Shown: piece after piece, positions 363-9,679 of the stretch | Layout: each line of letters begins with the position of its first letter | Position numbering within the stretch: position 1 is the first letter of the stretch | Assembly: GCA_009841435.1 (NCBI GenBank) | Contig: VXLW01000002.1 | Coordinates: forward strand, 1 to 64,000 | From: Dehalococcoidia bacterium | GTDB lineage: Bacteria > Chloroflexota > Dehalococcoidia > Tepidiformales > Tepidiformaceae | Length of the DNA stretch: 64,000 nt | Direction: 5' to 3' | Notes under the pieces: generated by a model | Database searches by the model: none | What the model saw: only the letters and a program-made list of their open reading frames with translations | What the model was told of the DNA's origin: nothing | Position numbers and translations under genes: made by a program

Positions 363-941
363 CTAGGCCAGGCCCCGCTTCGCAAGCTCCCGGGGCATCC
401 GCTCGGCGTCGGCGCTGAGCAGGGGGCCGCGCTCCTCGTCGGTGAGCGTGCCCGCCGTGTCCTTCGCCATCTTGCCTCCGTCGAAGAGGATCCACTTCTC
501 GGGGATGACCTCGAGGATGACGCGGAGGGGCGAGTCGAGGCGGTCGACGAAGGCCGCGGCGGCCTCCGCGTCGGGGCTGATCTTGTTCGCGAGGGCCGGG
601 TAGAACCAATCCTTGGTCTCCCGGTCGTCGTGGATGATGCAGCGGCCCTTGGCCGTGGCCTGGCCTCCCGGCGCGCCCGAGTCCGGGTCGCAGGCGGCGC
701 TGCTCACGATGACGGAGACACGCGGGTCCCGTCGGATGGCGGCCACGCGGTGGCGGTGGACCGCACAGGTAATCCAGAAGCGCCCCTCATGCCAGACATA
801 GGCGTGGATGACGCCGACGGGCCAGCCGTCCTGCGTGCTCCAGTTGAGCGCGCACTCCCTGGCGTTTACGAGCAGCGATTCGAGCTGCTCCTCGTCGAGT
901 GGGTAGCCGGAAACGGTTTCGTGGTCCTGTGCGCCCGCCAT
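363..941 (-). CDS. Pyridoxamine 5'-phosphate oxidase-family (FMN/F420 split-barrel) protein
   Basis: The 192-aa protein looks like a single flavin-reductase-type split barrel. The N-terminal half has the typical pattern of strands (W-P-V-G-V-I-H, then FWITCAVHRHRVAAIRRDP, then RVSVIVSS), where incoming cofactor and solvent-exposed Arg/His residues usually sit. The C-terminal part has the W-I-L-F-D strand of PPOX-like proteins. Such proteins bind FMN, F420 or haem and reduce small organic substrates; the substrate cannot be read from sequence. The ATG follows a good ribosome site (GGAGG, 6 nt spacer). It is divergent from the nuclease gene at 1043, so the 942-1042 gap holds both promoters. Confidence 0.75.
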   Translation of the reverse strand: MAGAQDHETVSGYPLDEEQLESLLVNARECALNWSTQDGWPVGVIHAYVWHEGRFWITCAVHRHRVAAIRRDPRVSVIVSSAACDPDSGAPGGQATAKGRCIIHDDRETKDWFYPALANKISPDAEAAAAFVDRLDSPLRVILEVIPEKWILFDGGKMAKDTAGTLTDEERGPLLSADAERMPRELAKRGLA

Positions 942-1030
942 CTGGAGCCTCCAAAGGTGTTGCTGGCCGCGTCATGCGCGGCGCCCCGAACCGTGGCAGA
1001 GCGCGGCGCGCGCGTCAACGCCTCCGCTGC

Positions 1031-1042
1031 TACGCTCGCGCC
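1031..1042 (+). promoter_or_regulatory. Leaderless promoter -10 box for the RecB-like nuclease
   Basis: TACGCT (1031-1036) lies 6 nt before the GTG at 1043, and no Shine-Dalgarno sequence is present. The spacing puts the transcription start at the start codon itself. It is one of 16 such sites seen in this window. Confidence 0.55.
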
Positions 1043-2899
1043 GTGGGCATAGAGGCGCTGACGCACGACGACGACGGCAAACTCGTCGTCCCGGAGACGG
1101 CCGAAGAGTGGGACGAGTGGGTCTCGGCGTCGAGGACGCGAAACCACGTGCTCGACAACCCGCTCGTCGACTGGCTCGAACGGTGGGGTGAGGAGCACGG
1201 CTACGAACCCGACCCCGTCGAGGAGGACACGGACTTCCTGACGTTCCTCTTCGGCAAGGGGAACGCGTTCGAGGCGGCGGTCGTGGAGCACCTGCGGGGG
1301 CTGGCGGAAGTGCGGATGGTGGAGCCGGAAGGAATGGACCGTGAGGAGCTCCGCCAGCTGTCGGTCGCCGAGGCAACCTATGCGGCGATGGCTGATGGGG
1401 CGGAGATCATCTGCCAGGCGTGGATGCGCGACCCGCAGTCGCGCACCTACGGCGCGCCCGACCTGCTCGTTCGAAGCGACGTGCTCGCAGACCTGTTCCC
1501 GGGGTCGATTTCCGACGAGGCGGCGGCCATGCGCGCACCGGACCTGGGCATCGGAGACCGGCACTACCGCGTGGTCGACATCAAGTTCTCGACGCTCCAC
1601 CTGGCGGCGGGCGGCGAGCTCGGGAACTCGGGTTCGGCGCCGGCCTACAAGGCGCAGGTGTACATCTACAACCGCGCACTCGGGAGGCTGCAGGGCTACC
1701 TGCCGCCCGAGGCGTTCGTGCTGGGCCGGGGCTGGGAGCAGACCCGCCGGGGCGAGAAGTCCCGGGGCACGAGCTGCATGGAACGGCTCGCGCCGGTCGC
1801 GAACGACTACGCCTCTCGCAAGGGCGGGGCGCTTTCGCACCAGGTCGAGGAGGCGGTGGCGTGGGTGCGGCGGGTCCGCGCGGAGGGGCGCGACTGGCAC
1901 GTACTCCCCGAACCCTCTGTCGACGAGCTTCGCCCCAGCGCCAAGGAGGACGTGGGCAGGTGGGCGAGCGTGGTCAAGGAGATCGTGAAGCAGAGCGAGG
2001 ATCTGACGCAGCTCTGGTGGGTCGGCGTCCCCCGGCGGCAGGATGCCAACCGGCAAGGACTCATGCGCTGGACGGACCCGCGCGTCACCCCTGAGACGCT
2101 GGGTGTCACAGGAACCTCGAGAGCCCCCAACTTGCGGGCCCTGCTCGACGTGAACCGCGAGCCCGGGCCCGACGTCCGGCCCGCCCACATCTCCGAGGCG
2201 CGGGCGGACTGGATCGAGGAGGCGCCCGCCGAGTTCTACGTGGACTTCGAGACGGTGAGCGACCTCGACGACGACTTCTCGGGTATCCCGGAGCGGGGCG
2301 GGCAGCCCCTCATCTTCATGGTCGGGTGCGGGCACCTGGAGGATGGTGACTGGCGGTTCAAGTGCTTCATCGCCGACCTGCTCGATGAGCGTTCCGAGGC
2401 GAAGGTCATCGACGACTGGTTCGAGCACATGACGTCGGTTCGCGACCGGCTCGCGCCGGGGGTGGACCCGAAGGTCATTCACTGGTCACCACACGAGACG
2501 ATCACGCTGGAGACGGCTTTCGACGCCGCCGTGAAGCGTCACGAGAAGACCGGCTGGCAACACACCAGGCAGCAGAAGCCGTGGCCGCACCCCAACTGGT
2601 TCGACTACCTGAACAAAGTGATGAAGCGGGAGCCGGTGGTCGTGCGGGGAGCGCATGGGTTCGGGCTGAAGGCGGTCACGAACGCGATGCACGACCTGGG
2701 CCTGGTCGAGACGCGCTGGGACGAAGGTCCGGCCGACGGGCTCGGGGCGATGGTGGGGGCGTGGACGTGCGATGGGGAGGCGCGCCGCACGGGCGGCAGC
2801 ATGCGCGACCTCGAACTGATGAAGGGCATCGGGCGGTACAACGAGGTCGACTGCAAGGCGATGATGGAACTCGTCCGCTACCTGCGTCGCCACCACTAG
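1043..2899 (+). CDS. TM0106-type putative nuclease: RecB-like PD-(D/E)XK domain fused to a YprB-like RNase H domain
   Basis: The 618-aa protein carries two nuclease folds. Residues about 90-290 have a PD-(D/E)XK core: GAPDLLVR (Asp140), VVDIKFS (Asp179, Lys181), then YKAQVYIYNRALG with the conserved Gln of RecB-type nucleases. Residues about 395-618 form a DEDD exonuclease-like RNase H fold: YVDFET (Asp401, Glu403) near its start and YNEVDC (Asp603) near its end. This order matches the TM0106 family (RecB-like plus RNase_H_2), whose cellular role is poorly known. It probably processes DNA or RNA ends. The frame is open upstream to 899, but the GTG at 1043 sits 6 nt after a TACGCT box, and the upstream translation is low-complexity. 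The gene stands alone between a divergent flavoprotein and the sigma-factor operon. Confidence 0.82.
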   Translation: MGIEALTHDDDGKLVVPETAEEWDEWVSASRTRNHVLDNPLVDWLERWGEEHGYEPDPVEEDTDFLTFLFGKGNAFEAAVVEHLRGLAEVRMVEPEGMDREELRQLSVAEATYAAMADGAEIICQAWMRDPQSRTYGAPDLLVRSDVLADLFPGSISDEAAAMRAPDLGIGDRHYRVVDIKFSTLHLAAGGELGNSGSAPAYKAQVYIYNRALGRLQGYLPPEAFVLGRGWEQTRRGEKSRGTSCMERLAPVANDYASRKGGALSHQVEEAVAWVRRVRAEGRDWHVLPEPSVDELRPSAKEDVGRWASVVKEIVKQSEDLTQLWWVGVPRRQDANRQGLMRWTDPRVTPETLGVTGTSRAPNLRALLDVNREPGPDVRPAHISEARADWIEEAPAEFYVDFETVSDLDDDFSGIPERGGQPLIFMVGCGHLEDGDWRFKCFIADLLDERSEAKVIDDWFEHMTSVRDRLAPGVDPKVIHWSPHETITLETAFDAAVKRHEKTGWQHTRQQKPWPHPNWFDYLNKVMKREPVVVRGAHGFGLKAVTNAMHDLGLVETRWDEGPADGLGAMVGAWTCDGEARRTGGSMRDLELMKGIGRYNEVDCKAMMELVRYLRRHH

Positions 2900-2932: not shown

Positions 2933-2956
2933 CGCCGGATCGGGAACGATCCGGCG
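2933..2956. repeat. Perfect 10-bp inverted repeat with GGAA loop upstream of the ECF sigma gene
   Basis: The arms CGCCGGATCG (2933-2942) and CGATCCGGCG (2947-2956) are perfectly complementary around a 4-nt loop, GGAA. There is no T-run afterwards, so it is not a clear Rho-independent terminator for the nuclease gene 34 nt upstream. Its position 94 nt before the sigma-factor start also fits an operator. The loop and following base read GGAAC, which resembles an ECF-type -35 element. Confidence 0.6.
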
Positions 2957-3049
2957 GGTTGGCGCATATCTCTTGTCACGATGGTACTGGCGCATCCCGA
3001 TGCGCGACGCGAACACTACCCCATCCGGCTGGTGGAAGGTGAGGGACGC

Positions 3050-3607
3050 ATGACCGACGACGAAGCCGTCCTGCGGTGTCAGGACGGCGACCGTGAGGCC
3101 TTCCGCCACCTGGTGGAGCAGTACAAGAACCCGCTCTACGGCACGGCGTACCTGATGACGGGCAACGCCGCGCAGGCCGAGGAGCACGTGCAGGAGGCGT
3201 TCCTGCTGGCCTGGCGCGGCATCAGATCGTTCCAGCGGGGCCGCCCGGTGAAGCCCTGGCTGATGCGCATCCTCGTGAACGCGGTGCTGGCGCAGCAGCG
3301 CAAGCGTTCCCTGCAAACCGTGCCGCTCGAGGAAACGCTGCCCGTGGGAGCCCCCACCAGCGGCGCCGATTCGATCGAGGCGAGCGAAGACCGCGAGGCC
3401 GTGCGGCAAGCCCTCGCCCAGCTAACCCCCGAACACCGCCAGGTCGTGGTGCTGCGCTACTTCGCCGACCTGACGGTCCCACAAGTCGCCCGTTCCGCCG
3501 GGGTGCGGGAGGGCACGGTCAAGTCGCGGCTCCATCGAGCGCTCCGCCAGATGCGGGAGCTGCTGGAGCAGTCGGGTGTGATGGAGGTGGCCGGCAATGG
3601 CGCGTAA
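3050..3607 (+). CDS. ECF-type (sigma-70 family group 4) RNA polymerase sigma factor
   Basis: The 185-aa protein has the two-domain ECF layout. Region 2 covers about residues 8-75 (DREAFRHLVEQYKNPLYGTA ... HVQEAFLLAWRGI), and region 4 covers about 115-170 (LAQLTPEHRQVVVLRYFADL, then the helix-turn-helix VPQVARSAGVREGTVKSRLH). It directs RNA polymerase to a specialised promoter set. The ATG at 3050 is preceded by GGAAGGTGAGG and gives the normal family N-terminus; the frame is open back to an ATG at 2981. The last 11 nt overlap the start of the VWA gene, so the two are translationally coupled. The coupled partner of an ECF factor is usually its anti-sigma regulator, and here that slot is filled by a transmembrane VWA protein. 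Confidence 0.93.
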   Translation: MTDDEAVLRCQDGDREAFRHLVEQYKNPLYGTAYLMTGNAAQAEEHVQEAFLLAWRGIRSFQRGRPVKPWLMRILVNAVLAQQRKRSLQTVPLEETLPVGAPTSGADSIEASEDREAVRQALAQLTPEHRQVVVLRYFADLTVPQVARSAGVREGTVKSRLHRALRQMRELLEQSGVMEVAGNGA

Positions 3608-5819
3608 CGACATGCCAGATCAGGAGATGGAACGAAAGCTCCGCGAGCACTTCGCGGAAGAAGCCCCGGACCTGCAGGCCCCGGACGACCTCTGGGACCG
3701 CCTGGAGGACCGCCTGGGAAAACAGGATCCGCCGCGCTTCGCCCTCTTGCGGGGTGGAGCCAGCGCCATCGGCTCGATGCCATGGATTCCGGCGGCGGCG
3801 GCAGCGGTACTGGTTGTGGGCTTGGGCGTGGGCGCCTGGGCCCTCGCCGGCGGGACCGGCGATAGCGGCGACGATGACGACGATGGCGGGGCCATCGCCG
3901 CCAGCAGCGATGAGCAAGTCGAGCCGGTCCGGGAGGCTGCGACGCAGGCCGCCGCGACGGAGGCAGCCGAAGACGAGGCCTACGAGGCTACAGAGGCTCC
4001 GGCGGCCCAGGAGGCAGCTGCGACAGCGGCGGCCGCCGCGCGGGCCGTGGAGCGGGACGCGTCGGAGGAAGCGACCCCCGAGGCTGTCTCGACTCCCGCG
4101 CCGACCCCCAAGCCAACGCCTGCGCGCGCGCAGGCCACGCAGCCAGCAGAGAGCGAAACCCCGGCGCCCGAGAGCAGCGAAGCCCGCGAGCCCGCCGATG
4201 ACGCTGGCACGGATGTCGAGCAGGCCGAGGAGCCGGCGGAGCCTGAAGACATGGCCGACGAGGCCATGGATGACATGGGCGACGACATGGCAGCCGAGGC
4301 CATGGAGGAGGCGGACGCCGAGGACTCGGCCTCCTTGTCCGGGCGGGGCAGCGGCCCCCCCGAGGTCGACGAGCCCCCCCAGCGCCCCTCCGACACGACC
4401 TTCGAGGACTACGAGCGCACGGCCTTCGTCTCGACCGACATCGACGCCGTTTCGACGTTCAGCCTGGACACCGACCGCACCTCCTACTTCCTCGCGCTCA
4501 CCTGGATCAGCAACGGCTATCCGGTCGACCCCAACTCGGTGCGAGCGGAGGAATGGATCAACGCCTTCGACTACGGCTACGCCCGGCCCGCCGGCGAGGA
4601 CCGCTTCGCCGTCATCAGCGACTTGGTGCGGCACCCGATCGAGGGCGGCTGGCACCTCGCCCGCATCGCCATGCAGGCGCCCGACGTGCGCGACGACCGG
4701 CCGCTCAACGTGACGCTGGTGCTTGATGCCTCCGGCTCGATGTCCTGGGGCGATCGCGTCGCCATCGCGCGGGAGGCGGCGGAGACCATCCGCCAGAGCC
4801 TCGGCGCGCGGGACCGCATCGCCGTCGTGCACTTCACGACCGACGTGCTCGACCGCTACACGGTCAAGCACAGCTCGCCCGACAACGAGGACGTCGTGTG
4901 GTCGATCGAACGGCTGGCCGCGCACGACAGCACGAACGTGCAGGCCGGGCTCAACCTCGGCGTGCAGCTGGCCGACGAGGCCCGGCGCGAGCGGCCGGAT
5001 GCCTACAACTACATCATCCTCATGTCGGACGGCGTCGCGAACGTGGACGCGACCGACCCCTTCGCCATCCTCGAGGGGGCGCCCGACACCGACAGCAGGA
5101 ACCCGCTGCGGCTCATCACCATCGGGGTCGGCATCGACAACTACAACGACGTGCTGCTGGAGCAGCTCGCCCAGCACGGCAACGGCTGGTACCGCTACCT
5201 CGACGACACCGCCCAAGCGCGGGAGACGTTCAGCCGCGAGAACTGGCTGGCGCTCTCCACGCCCTTCGCCGACCAGGCCCGCGCCCAGGTGACCTGGGAC
5301 CCGGCCGTGGTGAAGGAGTGGCGCATCGTCGGATACGAGAACCGGATCACGCCGGACCACACGTTCACCCAGAACCGCCGGGAGTTCGCCGAGCTGCCCG
5401 CCGGAACCGCCACCACCGTCTTCTACGAACTCGTGCTGCACGAGGGTGTCAGCCTCTCGGCAGTGCTCGGGAACGTGGAGGTGCGCTGGGTCGACCCGGC
5501 CACGGGCGACTCGGTCAGCCAGACGGCCGCCGTCGCGGGCCCTACGGACGTGGAGTTCGACGACGCCGACCGCTTCCTGCGGCTGGGCGCGATCGTGGGG
5601 CTCTCCGCCGACCGGTACAGCAGCCTCTCGCCGCAGGTCGAGAACGCGGAGGTCGACTACGCCGGCATCCACGCCGACCTCTCGGCCCTGCAGGGCCGGC
5701 TCAGGGGGCTTGAGGGAAGCCTTGGGTCCTCCCAGGCGTACCAGGACTTCAGCTTCCTGCTGGACGAGTTGACGGCTGAGGCCGCCGAGCAGGCGCCTTC
5801 TTCGGGCTACAGCCAGTGA
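3597..5819 (+). CDS. Transmembrane VWA-domain protein (YfbK type) with an anti-sigma-like cytoplasmic N-terminus
   Basis: The 740-aa protein begins with about 60 charged cytoplasmic residues (REHFAEEAPDLQ, DDLWDRLEDRL), then one membrane helix (about 64-86), then about 180 residues of Ala/Glu/Pro/Thr-rich linker. The extracytoplasmic part matches the YfbK layout: VWA N-terminal segment from about 267, a VWA domain with the MIDAS motif DASGS (Asp377), STN and MSDG, and a DUF3520-like C-terminus. VWA domains bind partners through a metal ion. The gene overlaps the ECF sigma gene by 11 nt and has a GGAGG ribosome site inside it. By architecture it could hold the sigma factor at the membrane and sense something outside, but no zinc anti-sigma motif is visible, so this is inference. 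The next gene is a paralogue. Confidence 0.85.
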   Translation: MARNDMPDQEMERKLREHFAEEAPDLQAPDDLWDRLEDRLGKQDPPRFALLRGGASAIGSMPWIPAAAAAVLVVGLGVGAWALAGGTGDSGDDDDDGGAIAASSDEQVEPVREAATQAAATEAAEDEAYEATEAPAAQEAAATAAAAARAVERDASEEATPEAVSTPAPTPKPTPARAQATQPAESETPAPESSEAREPADDAGTDVEQAEEPAEPEDMADEAMDDMGDDMAAEAMEEADAEDSASLSGRGSGPPEVDEPPQRPSDTTFEDYERTAFVSTDIDAVSTFSLDTDRTSYFLALTWISNGYPVDPNSVRAEEWINAFDYGYARPAGEDRFAVISDLVRHPIEGGWHLARIAMQAPDVRDDRPLNVTLVLDASGSMSWGDRVAIAREAAETIRQSLGARDRIAVVHFTTDVLDRYTVKHSSPDNEDVVWSIERLAAHDSTNVQAGLNLGVQLADEARRERPDAYNYIILMSDGVANVDATDPFAILEGAPDTDSRNPLRLITIGVGIDNYNDVLLEQLAQHGNGWYRYLDDTAQARETFSRENWLALSTPFADQARAQVTWDPAVVKEWRIVGYENRITPDHTFTQNRREFAELPAGTATTVFYELVLHEGVSLSAVLGNVEVRWVDPATGDSVSQTAAVAGPTDVEFDDADRFLRLGAIVGLSADRYSSLSPQVENAEVDYAGIHADLSALQGRLRGLEGSLGSSQAYQDFSFLLDELTAEAAEQAPSSGYSQ
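5223..5299 (+). repeat. Near-identical patch shared by the two VWA genes (copy 1)
   Basis: This 77-nt stretch matches 7097-7173 with one mismatch, although much of the two genes is clearly diverged. It encodes the region just after the VWA domain. Confidence 0.85.
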
Positions 5820-5884
5820 CCTGGCTCGCTATCCGGACGGGGCGCTCGCGGAGCGCCCCCACGCAGAGAGCAAAGGAGGCTCAT

Positions 5885-7699
5885 ATGCGATTCCCCGCAC
5901 GGATGTACCGGATCCTCGCCGCAGGCGCCGCGGTGGCGCTCCTCACGCTGGCGATCGCCGCCTGCGGCGGCGTGGACGGCGATGACGACGACAGCGCCGC
6001 ACCTGCCGCACCCGCGGCGACGCAGGCGGCCGCCGAAGCCACGCAGGCGCCTAGCCGTGCGCGACCGGTCCAGGCAGCGGCGACCGAAGCCGAAGCTGCG
6101 GAAGAGGCCTACGAGGCCGAAGCTACAGCAGCGGCCGCGCAGGAAGCTGCGGCGGACAGCGGCTCCTGCGCCAACTGCGCGACCGCTCGCCAGCAGGGGT
6201 CCACGAACACGACCCAGGCAGCCGCCTCGGTCAGCGAGCCGCCATCCCAGCGGCCTTCGCCCGGGGCCACGACATTCCAGAACTATGGCCGAACGCCGTA
6301 CGTCAAGACCTCGACGGACGCCGTCTCCACCTTCAGCCTGGATACCGACCGCACGTCGTACTTCCTCGCCCTCGCCTGGGCGCAGAGCGGCTACGCGGTC
6401 GAGCCCGACTCGGTGCGGGCGGAGGAGTGGGTGAACGCCTTCTCCTACGACTACGACCAGCCCCGCGACGACCGCAGCTTCGCCATCACGAGCGACGTGG
6501 TGCAGCACCCCCTCGGGGGCGGACGCCACCTCGTGCGCGTGGCCTTCCAGGCCCCGCACGTCCGCGACGACGTGCCCCTGAACGTGACGCTCGTGCTGGA
6601 TGCCTCCGGCTCGATGTCCTCGGGGAACCGCGTCGCCATCGCTCGGGAGGCGGCGGAGGCCATCCGCAACAGCCTCGGCTCCGACGACCGCATCGCCGTC
6701 GTCCACTTCACCACCGACGTGATCGACTGGTACACCGTCGAGCACAGCCGGCCCGGCAACGAGGATGTGGCCTGGTCGATTGGACAGCTCGCCCCGCACA
6801 ACTCGACGAACGTGCAGGCTGGGCTCGACCTCGGCGTGCGGCTCGCCGACGAGGCGCGGCGCGAGCGCCCCGACGCCTACAACTACGTGATCCTCATGTC
6901 GGACGGCGTCGCGAACGTGGACACGACCAACCCCTTCGCCATCCTCGATTCCTCGCCCGACACCGACCACCGCAACCCGCTGCGGCTCATCACCATCGGC
7001 GTCGGCATCGAGAACTACAACGACTACCTGCTCGAGCAGCTCGCCCAGCACGGCAACGGCTGGTACCGCTACCTCGACACGACCGAGCAGGCGCGCGAGA
7101 CGTTCAGCCGCGAGAACTGGCTGGCACTCTCCACGCCCTTCGCCGACCAGGCCCGCGCCCAGGTGACCTGGGATCCGTCACTGGTTAGCTCCTGGCGCAT
7201 CGTCGGCTACGAGAACCGGGTCACGCCGGACCACACCTTCGAGCAGAACCGCCGCGAGTTCGCCGAGCTGCCCTCGGGCGCGGCCACGACGGCGTTCTAC
7301 GAGGTCGTCCTGCACAACGAGACCCGCCGCGGCCTGGCCACGCTGGGCGAGGTAGAGGTGCGCTGGGTGGACCCGCGTTCGGGCGACACCTACAGCCAGG
7401 CGGCACTCCTGGAGGGCCGCACCGACGCCCCCTTCGACGCAGGCGACCAGCACCTCCGCTTCGGCGCCATCGTGGCGCTCGCCTCCGACCGTTACAGCGC
7501 CCTCTCGGTGCAGCTCGAGGGCGCGAAGATCGACATCGCCGGCCTGGGCGCCGACATGACGGCGCTGCGGGCGGAGCTGGACTCGCTCTACGAGCGGATG
7601 AGCACCCTGCAGTCCTACCACGACTTCAGCTTCCTGCTGGAGCGGATGACGGCCCGCGTCGAGGAGCTCGGGGGCGGGAGTTCAGGCTACAGCCAGTGA
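5885..7699 (+). CDS. VWA-domain lipoprotein (YfbK type), paralogue of the preceding gene
   Basis: The 604-aa protein starts with a lipoprotein signal peptide (MRFPARMYRI..., lipobox LAIAAC, Cys27) followed by an acidic/Ala-rich linker. It then has the same module order as its neighbour: VWA N-terminal segment, VWA domain with MIDAS DASGS (Asp239), STN and MSDG, and a DUF3520-like end finishing in the same GYSQ tail. It lacks the cytoplasmic segment and membrane helix of the first copy, so it would sit lipid-anchored outside the membrane. The ATG follows a strong site (AAAGGAGG, about 4 nt spacer); upstream frame extensions lack one. The spacer to gene one is 65 nt, consistent with one operon. 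Confidence 0.87.
   Translation: MRFPARMYRILAAGAAVALLTLAIAACGGVDGDDDDSAAPAAPAATQAAAEATQAPSRARPVQAAATEAEAAEEAYEAEATAAAAQEAAADSGSCANCATARQQGSTNTTQAAASVSEPPSQRPSPGATTFQNYGRTPYVKTSTDAVSTFSLDTDRTSYFLALAWAQSGYAVEPDSVRAEEWVNAFSYDYDQPRDDRSFAITSDVVQHPLGGGRHLVRVAFQAPHVRDDVPLNVTLVLDASGSMSSGNRVAIAREAAEAIRNSLGSDDRIAVVHFTTDVIDWYTVEHSRPGNEDVAWSIGQLAPHNSTNVQAGLDLGVRLADEARRERPDAYNYVILMSDGVANVDTTNPFAILDSSPDTDHRNPLRLITIGVGIENYNDYLLEQLAQHGNGWYRYLDTTEQARETFSRENWLALSTPFADQARAQVTWDPSLVSSWRIVGYENRVTPDHTFEQNRREFAELPSGAATTAFYEVVLHNETRRGLATLGEVEVRWVDPRSGDTYSQAALLEGRTDAPFDAGDQHLRFGAIVALASDRYSALSVQLEGAKIDIAGLGADMTALRAELDSLYERMSTLQSYHDFSFLLERMTARVEELGGGSSGYSQ
7097..7173 (+). repeat. Near-identical patch shared by the two VWA genes (copy 2)
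   Basis: This is the partner of 5223-5299, with 76 of 77 bases identical at an offset of 1874 nt. It suggests recent duplication or gene conversion limited to part of the gene. Confidence 0.85.
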
Positions 7700-7789: not shown

Positions 7790-9679
7790 CTACGGTCGCC
7801 ACGGCCACCGCCGGGCGAGGAACGCCGCGCCGGTCAGGGTGGCGCCCAGTGCGACCACGACCACCCACGCTCCTGCCGGCCAACCGCCCGTGGCCGATCG
7901 CGACAGGCCGTTGCCCGTGGCGGCGGGTTCGGGTGCCTCCGCGGTCGACGGCATTGGCGCCTGCACCCGCTCAGGTGGCCGGGACCTGGAGTGGAGCTTT
8001 CCTCCCCAGCAGGCGATCTCGCCCGACTCCTTGAGAGCACAGGTCTGGTAGCGGGCCGCGCTCACGGAGAGGAAGCGCCCGGAGGGCGGCTCCGCCTGTC
8101 CCCAGACGTTTTCGCCCCAGCACACCACGGCTCCGTCGAGGTCCAGCGCACAGGCGTGCTGCCAGCCCACGCTCACCAACTGATACGTCCCCGCCGGCGG
8201 GTCTGTGCGGTGGTGTTGGCGGTTCCCCCAGCAGGTCAACTCGCCCGAGTCTCGTACGGCGCAGGTGTAGTCGTCGCGTGCGTCGAGGTGCCGGAATTGC
8301 CCGGAAGGGACGTCGGTCTGGCCGCTGTGGTTGGCGCCCCAGCAGGCCAGCTCCCCCGACTCACCCAGTGCACAGGTGTGAGCGAACCCGGCGGTGACCA
8401 GTCGGTACGCGCCTGGGGGCTGCGCCTGCTGGCGGTTGCCGTCGCCCCAGCAGGCCAGCTCACCCGAGTCTCGCACGGCGCAGCCGTGCCCGATCGCCAC
8501 GCTCAGGGACTGATACCGACCCGGAGGGATCTCCCACACCGGAGGATAGCGATCCCCCCAGCACACAAGCTCGCCAGACTCGCGAATGGCGCAGGCGTTC
8601 CCGTTGATGCCAGCGCTCACGGCCCGGAATGTGCCCGCGGGCTGCACCAGGCTGGCGAACGGGCCCCAGCAGTCCAGCACTCCTGTCTCGTGGATCGAGC
8701 AGTTGTGTTGGCCTCCCGCACTCACCGAACGGTAGGTTCCAGCAGGGGCGGTCCCGAGGCTGGCGCCGAACTGGTCGCCCCAACAGACGACCGTGCCGTC
8801 CGTGCGCACGGCGCAGGCATGCCTCCCCTCCACGCTTACAGAACGGAAGTTGCCGGAAGGACTGGCAGCCCAGGGACGCCCCCAGCAGAGGAGCTCACCT
8901 GAGTCCGTGACGGCACAGAACCCTCCGTTTCCTGCGTCGGCGCTGCGGTAGGATCCGGGCGAGTCCAGACTCTCCGGCCATCTACTCTCTCCCCAACACA
9001 GGATCTCACCTGCCTCGGTGATGCCGCAGGTGTGGTTGTAGCCTGCGTGAACGGAGTGGAAACGGCCCTCCGGCGCGTTCGTCTGGCCCCAGAGGTTGCC
9101 GCCCCAGCACCGGACTTCGCCGGACTCCAGGACGCCACAGGAGTAGGAGGTGCCACCGCTGACGGAGCGGTACGTGCCGGGAGGCGGATCTGTCTGGCCC
9201 CAGAAGTTGTCGCCCCAACAGACCGCTGCTCCCGTCTCGGTTACCGCGCAGGTGTGCGTGTGGCCTGCGCTCACGGAACGATAGGCGCCCGGTGGGGCGT
9301 CCACGGCCTCACTTACTTTCCAGCCATAGTCTCCGCCCCAGCAGACGATCTCGCCCGAGTCCCGGATGGCGCAGGCGTGCCACTCCCCGGCCGTGACCGA
9401 CCGGTACCTGCCCGGGGGCACATCCCGCTGGCCATAGCTGCCGTCTCCCCAACAGATCACCTCTCCGGTGGCGAGGAGGGCGCACGAGTGCTCGCCCCCA
9501 GCGGCCACCTCTAGGACGGGGCCACTGGTCGCCCGCTCGACGCTGAGGTCGGTGTAGTGAACGGTGCCCCTTGTGTCGGTGTGGGCGTCCACCGCCTCGA
9601 CACCCACCGCCACGAGCCCGAGCAGCACCGCCAAGGCCGCCGTGAGCACACCCTTCCACGGGCTACACAGGCGAGTCAC
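7790..9679 (-). CDS. Exported RCC1-like beta-propeller repeat protein with C-terminal membrane anchor
   Basis: The 629-aa protein has an N-terminal signal sequence (LTAALAVLLGLVAVGVEAV) and then 14 consecutive repeats of about 35 residues. The pattern is YRSVSAG...H-x-CAV-x-x-(S/T)GE-x-x-CWG-x-N-x-x-GQ-x-x-PPG, the RCC1_2-like type. Fourteen blades would suit two seven-bladed propellers. Almost every repeat carries a Cys pair (C...CWG), as expected for disulphides outside the cell. The last 46 residues form a Pro-Ala-Thr-Gly motif, a membrane helix (WVVVVALGATLTGAAFL) and a basic end, very like the end of the next gene. The GTG at 9679 is 6 nt from a TAGAGT box. Function is unknown; propellers of this type bind proteins or ligands. 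Confidence 0.85.
   Translation of the reverse strand: MTRLCSPWKGVLTAALAVLLGLVAVGVEAVDAHTDTRGTVHYTDLSVERATSGPVLEVAAGGEHSCALLATGEVICWGDGSYGQRDVPPGRYRSVTAGEWHACAIRDSGEIVCWGGDYGWKVSEAVDAPPGAYRSVSAGHTHTCAVTETGAAVCWGDNFWGQTDPPPGTYRSVSGGTSYSCGVLESGEVRCWGGNLWGQTNAPEGRFHSVHAGYNHTCGITEAGEILCWGESRWPESLDSPGSYRSADAGNGGFCAVTDSGELLCWGRPWAASPSGNFRSVSVEGRHACAVRTDGTVVCWGDQFGASLGTAPAGTYRSVSAGGQHNCSIHETGVLDCWGPFASLVQPAGTFRAVSAGINGNACAIRESGELVCWGDRYPPVWEIPPGRYQSLSVAIGHGCAVRDSGELACWGDGNRQQAQPPGAYRLVTAGFAHTCALGESGELACWGANHSGQTDVPSGQFRHLDARDDYTCAVRDSGELTCWGNRQHHRTDPPAGTYQLVSVGWQHACALDLDGAVVCWGENVWGQAEPPSGRFLSVSAARYQTCALKESGEIACWGGKLHSRSRPPERVQAPMPSTAEAPEPAATGNGLSRSATGGWPAGAWVVVVALGATLTGAAFLARRWPWRP

What the first reader, a model, noticed from the sequence alone, without database searches (positions are those of the whole stretch)
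3050..7699. ECF sigma factor coupled to a transmembrane VWA protein that may double as its anti-sigma factor
Seen: the sigma gene overlaps the VWA gene by 11 nt; the VWA protein has a 60-aa charged cytoplasmic segment, one membrane helix, a long linker and an outside MIDAS-containing VWA/DUF3520 region. The next gene is a lipoprotein paralogue without the cytoplasmic part. Inference: the first VWA protein could bind the sigma factor inside and a partner outside, and the lipoprotein could be its ligand or competitor.
Basis: inference. Interest (0 to 1): 0.6.

Follow-up and report, generated by a model that had tools for sequence, protein, structure and literature searches.

The report
Membrane VWA protein restraining sigma factor
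A surface protein with an integrin-like (VWA) outer domain carries a short inner tail that very probably holds back its partner transcription factor, so these uncultured Chloroflexota bacteria seem to use a VWA domain to sense something outside the cell and switch on surface-protein genes.

Summary
An ECF sigma gene (3050-3607) overlaps by 11 nt a transmembrane VWA/YfbK protein (3597-5819), followed by a lipoprotein paralogue (5885-7699). The anti-sigma reading is strongly supported by comparative genomics, though no binding was measured. The N-terminal tail is a portable module: of 63 distinct genomic hits in Chloroflexota (E<=1e-4), 54 lie directly downstream of a separate ECF sigma gene, 7 are fused to a sigma in one frame, 2 sit at contig ends, none lacks a sigma. 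The same tail occurs on unrelated outer domains (VWA, DUF4349, others). In six genomes with two sigma-VWA pairs, sigmas and tails diverged together (58% and 52% identity) while VWA cores stayed 91% identical. A GGAAC-N17-C[AG]TA promoter precedes 62 of 68 such sigma genes (shuffled mean 1.1), this one included, so the operon is probably autoregulated. The same site precedes an alpha-2-macroglobulin-like protein and a YscW-type lipoprotein in this genome, and DUF4349 lipoproteins in relatives. No Pfam family matches the tail. AlphaFold was not diagnostic: the sigma alone folds just as compactly. The lipoprotein-as-ligand idea is untested. Verdict: a new variant of the membrane anti-sigma factor.

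The parts
2943..2969 (+). ECF-type promoter GGAAC-N17-CATAT, 107 nt before the sigma ATG; probable autoregulation site
   Evidence: Invariant block in 7 related loci whose more upstream DNA diverges; GGAAC-N16-18-C[AG]T precedes 62 of 68 sigma genes of this type, shuffled mean 1.1
3050..3607 (+). ECF sigma factor, 185 aa (sigma2 + sigma4)
   Evidence: PF04542, PF04545, PF08281
3597..5819 (+). VWA1: transmembrane VWA/YfbK-type protein, 740 aa, proposed anti-sigma factor
   Evidence: Pfam domains, hydropathy, comparative evidence
3597..3782 (+). Cytoplasmic N-terminal tail of VWA1 (residues 1-62), proposed minimal anti-sigma domain; consensus DQEMERxLRxHF...APxDLWxxLExRL
   Evidence: Alignments A1 and A4; profile searches; no Pfam family
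3783..3851 (+). Transmembrane helix of VWA1 (about residues 63-85); N-in/C-out inferred from acidic outer flank and basic inner flank
   Evidence: Kyte-Doolittle windows above 1.6 only here
4392..5444 (+). Extracytoplasmic vWF_A + VWA + partial YfbK_C region; MIDAS DASGS at 4725-4739
   Evidence: Pfam; MIDAS DxSxS kept in 34 of 34 sigma-linked and 51 of 51 other VWAs
5839..5859 (+). Inverted repeat GGGGCGCTC-GCG-GAGCGCCCC between VWA1 and VWA2, without a T run
   Evidence: Read from the sequence; present in part in near relatives
5885..7699 (+). VWA2: lipoprotein paralogue, 604 aa, no cytoplasmic segment; MIDAS DASGS
   Evidence: Pfam, lipobox and paralogy

Best explanation
VWA1 is the membrane-bound anti-sigma factor of the ECF sigma encoded just upstream. 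Its about 50-residue cytoplasmic tail, two short helices, holds the sigma at the membrane and away from RNA polymerase (inferred). The outer VWA/YfbK region with an intact metal site senses an envelope or surface cue, most likely a protein ligand, and the signal crosses the single membrane helix by release or cleavage of the tail (inferred). Freed sigma reads GGAAC-N17-C[AG]TA promoters. That raises its own operon (sigma, VWA1, probably VWA2) and a small set of surface proteins: in this genome an alpha-2-macroglobulin-like protein and a YscW-type lipoprotein, in relatives DUF4349 lipoproteins. Shown here: modularity of the tail, its obligate link to ECF sigmas, its co-divergence with the sigma, and the shared promoter sequence. 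Not shown: physical binding, inhibition, the signal and the release step.
For: (1) Tail profile hits at E<=1e-4 in 393 class and 400 phylum genomes: 63 distinct, 54 directly downstream of a sigma gene, 7 fused to a sigma in one frame, 2 at contig ends, 0 without a sigma. (2) VWA proteins without a neighbouring sigma lack the tail and are mostly lipoproteins. (3) The tail also sits on DUF4349 and unrelated outer domains beside ECF sigmas. (4) Natural sigma-tail fusions, one continuing into a VWA domain (L161, 743 aa). (5) Paralogue pairs in six genomes: sigma 58%, tail 52%, VWA core 91% identity between the two pairs. (6) Promoter before 62 of 68 sigma genes, shuffled mean 1.1, reversed control 0; own genome 3 sites against 0 for the reversed pattern; ten genomes of other families 52 against 2. 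(7) No second copy of the tail and no zf-HC2 protein in this genome.
Against: No binding or inhibition was measured. The AlphaFold model of a natural fusion puts the sigma in the closed form seen in sigma/anti-sigma crystals, but the sigma alone is predicted just as closed, so this says nothing about the tail. The tail matches no Pfam family and no solved structure by sequence. The sigmas in the natural fusions look degenerate in DNA-binding parts, so those proteins may be decoys. Signal and release step are unknown.
Confidence: 0.85

Rival explanations
1. The tail recruits or stabilises the sigma at the membrane as a co-activator or co-sensor (as FecR-type proteins can) rather than inhibiting it.
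For: All comparative evidence shows a sigma-tail partnership, not its sign. In some other ECF systems the membrane partner is also needed for activity (own knowledge of FecI/FecR).
Against: Autoregulation together with a co-transcribed partner is the pattern described for ECF sigmas with anti-sigma factors, while FecI-like systems are named as exceptions to autoregulation (PMC8103513). The tail profile matches, weakly, the stretch after the zinc finger of zf-HC2 anti-sigma-like proteins.
Confidence: 0.08
2. The sigma is controlled elsewhere; VWA1 is only a co-transcribed surface protein with a conserved but unrelated tail.
For: VWA/YfbK proteins without a sigma are common in the same group, and the sigma's apparent targets are also surface proteins.
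Against: The tail follows the sigma and not the VWA domain: it is absent from VWAs without a sigma, present on non-VWA proteins with a sigma, and co-diverges with the sigma. No other copy of this segment and no zf-HC2 protein in the genome.
Confidence: 0.05
3. In addition to the main model, the lipoprotein VWA2 is the ligand or competitor that sets the state of VWA1 through VWA-VWA contact (an add-on to, not a replacement of, the main model).
For: It lies directly after VWA1 in the genus. In a distant relative a sigma-linked and a lipoprotein VWA in one chromosome share 97.5% DNA identity over 1488 nt of the outer domain but differ at the N-terminus.
Against: Outside the genus most sigma-VWA pairs have no lipoprotein VWA beside them; no contact was tested.
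Confidence: 0.25

Closest known systems
Class I anti-sigma factors with a zinc finger (zf-HC2: RsiW, ChrR, RslA) or without one (RseA, RskA)
   Same: Co-transcribed with an ECF sigma, cytoplasmic N-terminus, often one membrane helix and a variable outer domain. The tail profile matches, weakly, the stretch right after the zinc finger (helix-4 position) of two zf-HC2 anti-sigma-like proteins that also lie beside an ECF sigma (L109, L110).
   Different: No zinc motif and no room for a three-helix bundle plus helix 4; two short helices; not found by the zf-HC2 Pfam model.
Class II anti-sigma factors (CnrY, NepR)
   Same: Very short anti-sigma domain (literature: PMC8103513, PMC7406223).
   Different: No sequence match to a solved anti-sigma factor; outer domain is a VWA/YfbK region.
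YfbK / vWF_A proteins (PF12450 + VWA + PF12034)
   Same: The whole outer region of VWA1 and VWA2 belongs here.
   Different: VWA1 adds a cytoplasmic tail and a membrane helix and is tied to a sigma.
ECF sigma - VWA/YfbK pair on Rhizobium plasmids (e.g. NZ_CP013507)
   Same: Sigma gene overlaps by 4 nt a membrane VWA/YfbK protein with a short N-terminus before its hydrophobic stretch.
   Different: The N-terminal sequence is unrelated by profile search and the sigma is 28% identical. The layout may have arisen twice.

Membership tests
ECF sigma factor | Only sigma2 and sigma4 domains | tested here: met
   Pfam r2 and r4 only, 185 aa
ECF sigma factor | AAC in -35 and CGT-like -10, positive autoregulation (hallmarks listed in PMC8103513) | tested here: met
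   GGAAC-N17-C[AG]TA upstream, conserved; the site is shown, transcription is not
Anti-sigma factor (functional) | Co-encoded with the cognate sigma | tested here: met
   11-nt overlap; 61 of 63 tail hits beside or fused to a sigma, the other 2 at contig ends
Anti-sigma factor (functional) | Binds and inhibits the sigma | not testable with these tools
   Only single-chain prediction was possible; the control made it uninformative
Class I anti-sigma domain | Three-helix bundle plus helix 4, often with Hx3Cx2C | tested here: not met
   No zinc motif in the segment; two helices of 17 and 8 residues in the model of a related natural fusion; no zf-HC2 match
Class II anti-sigma domain | Short domain (about 50 aa or less) that embraces the outside of the sigma | tested here: inconclusive
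   Length fits; binding mode unknown; no sequence match to a solved member
YfbK / vWF_A family | vWF_A + VWA + YfbK_C in that order | tested here: met
   the YfbK_C match covers only a third of the model

The most novel reading that the evidence does not exclude
The tail is a separate, so far unnamed class of anti-sigma domain: a two-helix form in which only a helix-4-like part and one helix before it are present. In Chloroflexota it is plugged onto many outer sensors, here a metal-dependent (MIDAS) VWA sensor. In some genomes it has been fused in cis to a degenerate sigma under the same promoter, making a membrane decoy that tunes the intact system.
Probability: 0.35. Interest if true: 0.75.

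Novelty: new variant of a known kind. Interest (0 to 1): 0.58.

Why it matters
YfbK-type VWA proteins are widespread and, to my knowledge, their function is largely unknown; tying one to a sigma factor gives it a testable role as a signal receiver. The tail is a minimal anti-sigma domain that Pfam does not describe, so many ECF sigmas of sponge-associated and marine Chloroflexota may be listed without a regulator although one is encoded right beside them. The predicted targets (alpha-2-macroglobulin-like protein, DUF4349 and YscW-type lipoproteins) point to an envelope-defence or surface-remodelling response in uncultured bacteria. The swap of VWA for DUF4349 on the same tail makes a shared biology of these two uncharacterised domains testable.

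Tried and rejected
(b) The closed sigma conformation in the fusion model (Z 17.1 to SigW of the RsiW complex 5wur, 2.9 A over 156 residues) was first taken as support, then dropped because the sigma alone gives the same form (Z 19.6). (c) Aligning tails together with sigma rows put the tails on the sigma N-terminus, so tail-only rows were left out. (d) Weak tail hits (E about 1e-3 to 5e-3) without a sigma (L111, L144, L169) were looked at and judged chance. (e) The Rhizobium VWA tail is not related to ours. (f) Profile search of solved structures gave nothing. (g) No paper in the held library was found that describes an ECF-VWA pair; the 2021 ECF re-classification paper is not held, so an earlier listing of this group cannot be excluded. 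(h) Coupling analysis of sigma against tail was not run: too few independent pairs. (i) The first attempt at a VWA search of the order failed on the server.

Full report
WHAT IS THERE. The sigma gene (3050-3607) encodes an ECF sigma of 185 aa with regions 2 and 4 only. VWA1 (3597-5819) begins inside the last codons of the sigma gene behind a good ribosome site, giving an 11-nt overlap. VWA1 has a 62-residue charged N-terminus, one hydrophobic stretch, an acidic low-complexity linker, and vWF_A, VWA and partial YfbK_C domains with an intact DASGS metal site. VWA2 (5885-7699) is a lipoprotein paralogue, 71% identical over 489 aa. A perfect 9-bp inverted repeat lies between VWA1 and VWA2.

IS THE ADJACENCY MEANINGFUL. 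A search of one genome for each of about 85,000 species with VWA1 gave 79 loci, nearly all Chloroflexota MAGs. In 35 sigma-VWA ORF pairs the VWA gene follows an ECF sigma gene, mostly with an 11- or 4-nt overlap, and in all of these with a readable start the VWA protein begins with the same kind of N-terminus. VWA proteins without a sigma lack it and mostly show a lipobox instead.

THE TAIL IS A PORTABLE MODULE TIED TO SIGMAS. A profile of the tail alone (A1) was searched in 393 genomes of the class, and a wider one (A4) in 400 genomes of the phylum. Counting hits at E<=1e-4 once each gives 63: 54 lie directly downstream of a separate sigma gene, 7 are in one frame with a sigma, 2 are cut by a contig end, none lacks a sigma. 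About a dozen of the sigma-linked hits are not VWA proteins at all: five of those scanned carry DUF4349 (PF14257), others carry unnamed outer domains. Two zf-HC2 anti-sigma-like proteins (L109, and L110 at a weaker E-value) match the tail profile weakly, in the stretch just after the zinc finger, where class I anti-sigma factors have helix 4. [quoted passage not shown] No Pfam family matches the tail.

NATURAL FUSIONS. Eight reading frames (L135, L159-L165) join a sigma and the tail, and in most also the membrane helix, in one protein; L161 continues into a VWA domain (743 aa). Seven of the eight regions, each read with a distinct upstream sequence, keep the sigma-type promoter, yet their sigma parts have lost conserved residues in DNA-binding regions. 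They are diverged from one another, so they are not single assembly errors. They may act as membrane decoys (inference).

A NATURAL EXPERIMENT. Six genomes of one family each have two sigma-VWA pairs. Between the two pairs of a genome the sigmas are 58% identical, the tails 52% and the VWA cores 91%. Between genomes, within one type, they are 89%, 89% and 91%. So the tail has diverged with its sigma while the outer domain has been kept alike. This is what one expects if the tail must fit its sigma and both pairs listen to the same outside cue.

PROMOTER AND TARGETS. Aligning the DNA upstream of the sigma in seven related loci shows that sequence which is unrelated in several of them becomes invariant at GGGAACGATCC, followed by CGCATAT or CGCGTAT. 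GGAAC-N16-18-C[AG]T is found within 150 nt upstream of 62 of 68 distinct sigma genes of this type, against 1.1 in shuffled sequence and 0 in reversed sequence. In the whole home genome GGAACNATY-N13-CRTA occurs three times and its reversed control never: before the sigma, before a 2144-aa alpha-2-macroglobulin-like protein (PF00207, PF07703, PF17973), and before a lipoprotein of the YscW family (PF09619). In sister genomes it also precedes DUF4349-PKD lipoproteins (L199, L206). In ten genomes of other families 52 sites were found against 2 in the control, again before sigma genes, DUF4349 lipoproteins and other genes with signal peptides or lipoboxes. The sites were found by sequence only; no transcription was measured.

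STRUCTURE. Only single chains could be predicted. A natural fusion (L161) gave pLDDT 82.8 and pTM 0.77, with two tail helices (residues 189-205 and 213-220, block means mostly 84-93) and a closed sigma like SigW with RsiW and CnrH with CnrY. The control without the tail gave the same closed sigma (pTM 0.78). The closed form is therefore not evidence that the tail binds, and the interface remains unpredicted.

OTHER REGULATORS. The home genome (90% complete) holds three proteins with sigma region 2: one that is probably the housekeeping sigma, one other ECF sigma followed by a membrane protein, and this one. It has no zf-HC2 protein and one copy of the tail.

THE LIPOPROTEIN. VWA2 follows VWA1 in the window's genus but not in most other families. 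A tree of 85 VWA cores needs seven switches between sigma-linked and other forms, so tails and lipoprotein ends have been exchanged, gained or lost several times. In one chromosome a sigma-linked VWA (L041) and a lipoprotein VWA (L043) share 97.5% of 1488 nt of outer-domain DNA while differing at the N-terminus. This fits a shared outside partner or mutual contact, but nothing here tests it.

BEYOND CHLOROFLEXOTA. Rhizobium plasmids carry an ECF sigma overlapping by 4 nt a membrane VWA/YfbK protein. Its short N-terminus is unrelated to ours by profile search. The layout may therefore have arisen more than once.

CONCLUSION. VWA1 is most likely a membrane anti-sigma factor with an unusually small anti-sigma domain and a VWA sensor, in an autoregulated ECF system with a small surface-protein regulon. 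Partnership of tail and sigma is very well supported by the comparative evidence; the sign (inhibition) follows from the general pattern of ECF systems; signal, ligand and release are inference.

Noticed in passing
L135, L159-L165 (e.g. L161:950-3178 -): One-frame fusions of a degenerate ECF sigma with the anti-sigma tail, in most cases with a membrane helix and in L161 with a VWA domain, most still under the GGAAC promoter; possible membrane decoys.
   Followed up: partly
L041 and L043 (same chromosome, OX638324.1): A sigma-linked VWA and a lipoprotein VWA share 97.5% DNA identity over 1488 nt of the outer domain but have different N-termini: recent duplication or gene conversion.
   Followed up: partly
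L179:1320-7754 (G000:C126): 2144-aa bacterial alpha-2-macroglobulin-like protein with Big_5 domains behind a sigma-type promoter.
   Followed up: partly
L199, L206, L216, L229, L230, L233: DUF4349 lipoproteins behind the sigma-type promoter, while in other taxa DUF4349 is fused directly to the same anti-sigma tail; DUF4349 and VWA may share a function.
   Followed up: partly
L171 (Rhizobium plasmid NZ_CP013507.1): ECF sigma overlapping by 4 nt a membrane VWA/YfbK protein with an unrelated short N-terminus; the VWA N-terminal region is found on more than 100 Rhizobium plasmids.
   Followed up: partly
window 7790-9679 (-): RCC1-repeat-like secreted or membrane protein convergent with VWA2 (by eye); RCC1-like proteins also appear behind the promoter in another family (L218, L223).
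   Followed up: no
L114 (G000:C49:87868): The only other ECF sigma of the genome, followed by a membrane protein with a cytoplasmic N-terminus; possibly another sigma/anti-sigma pair.
   Followed up: no
window 899-2899 (+): 666-aa protein with no Pfam or NCBIfam match; by eye it looks like a nuclease with an RNase H-like part.
   Followed up: no
L006:4986-7182: The VWA1 orthologue is split into two overlapping frames in this MAG: frameshift or assembly error.
   Followed up: no
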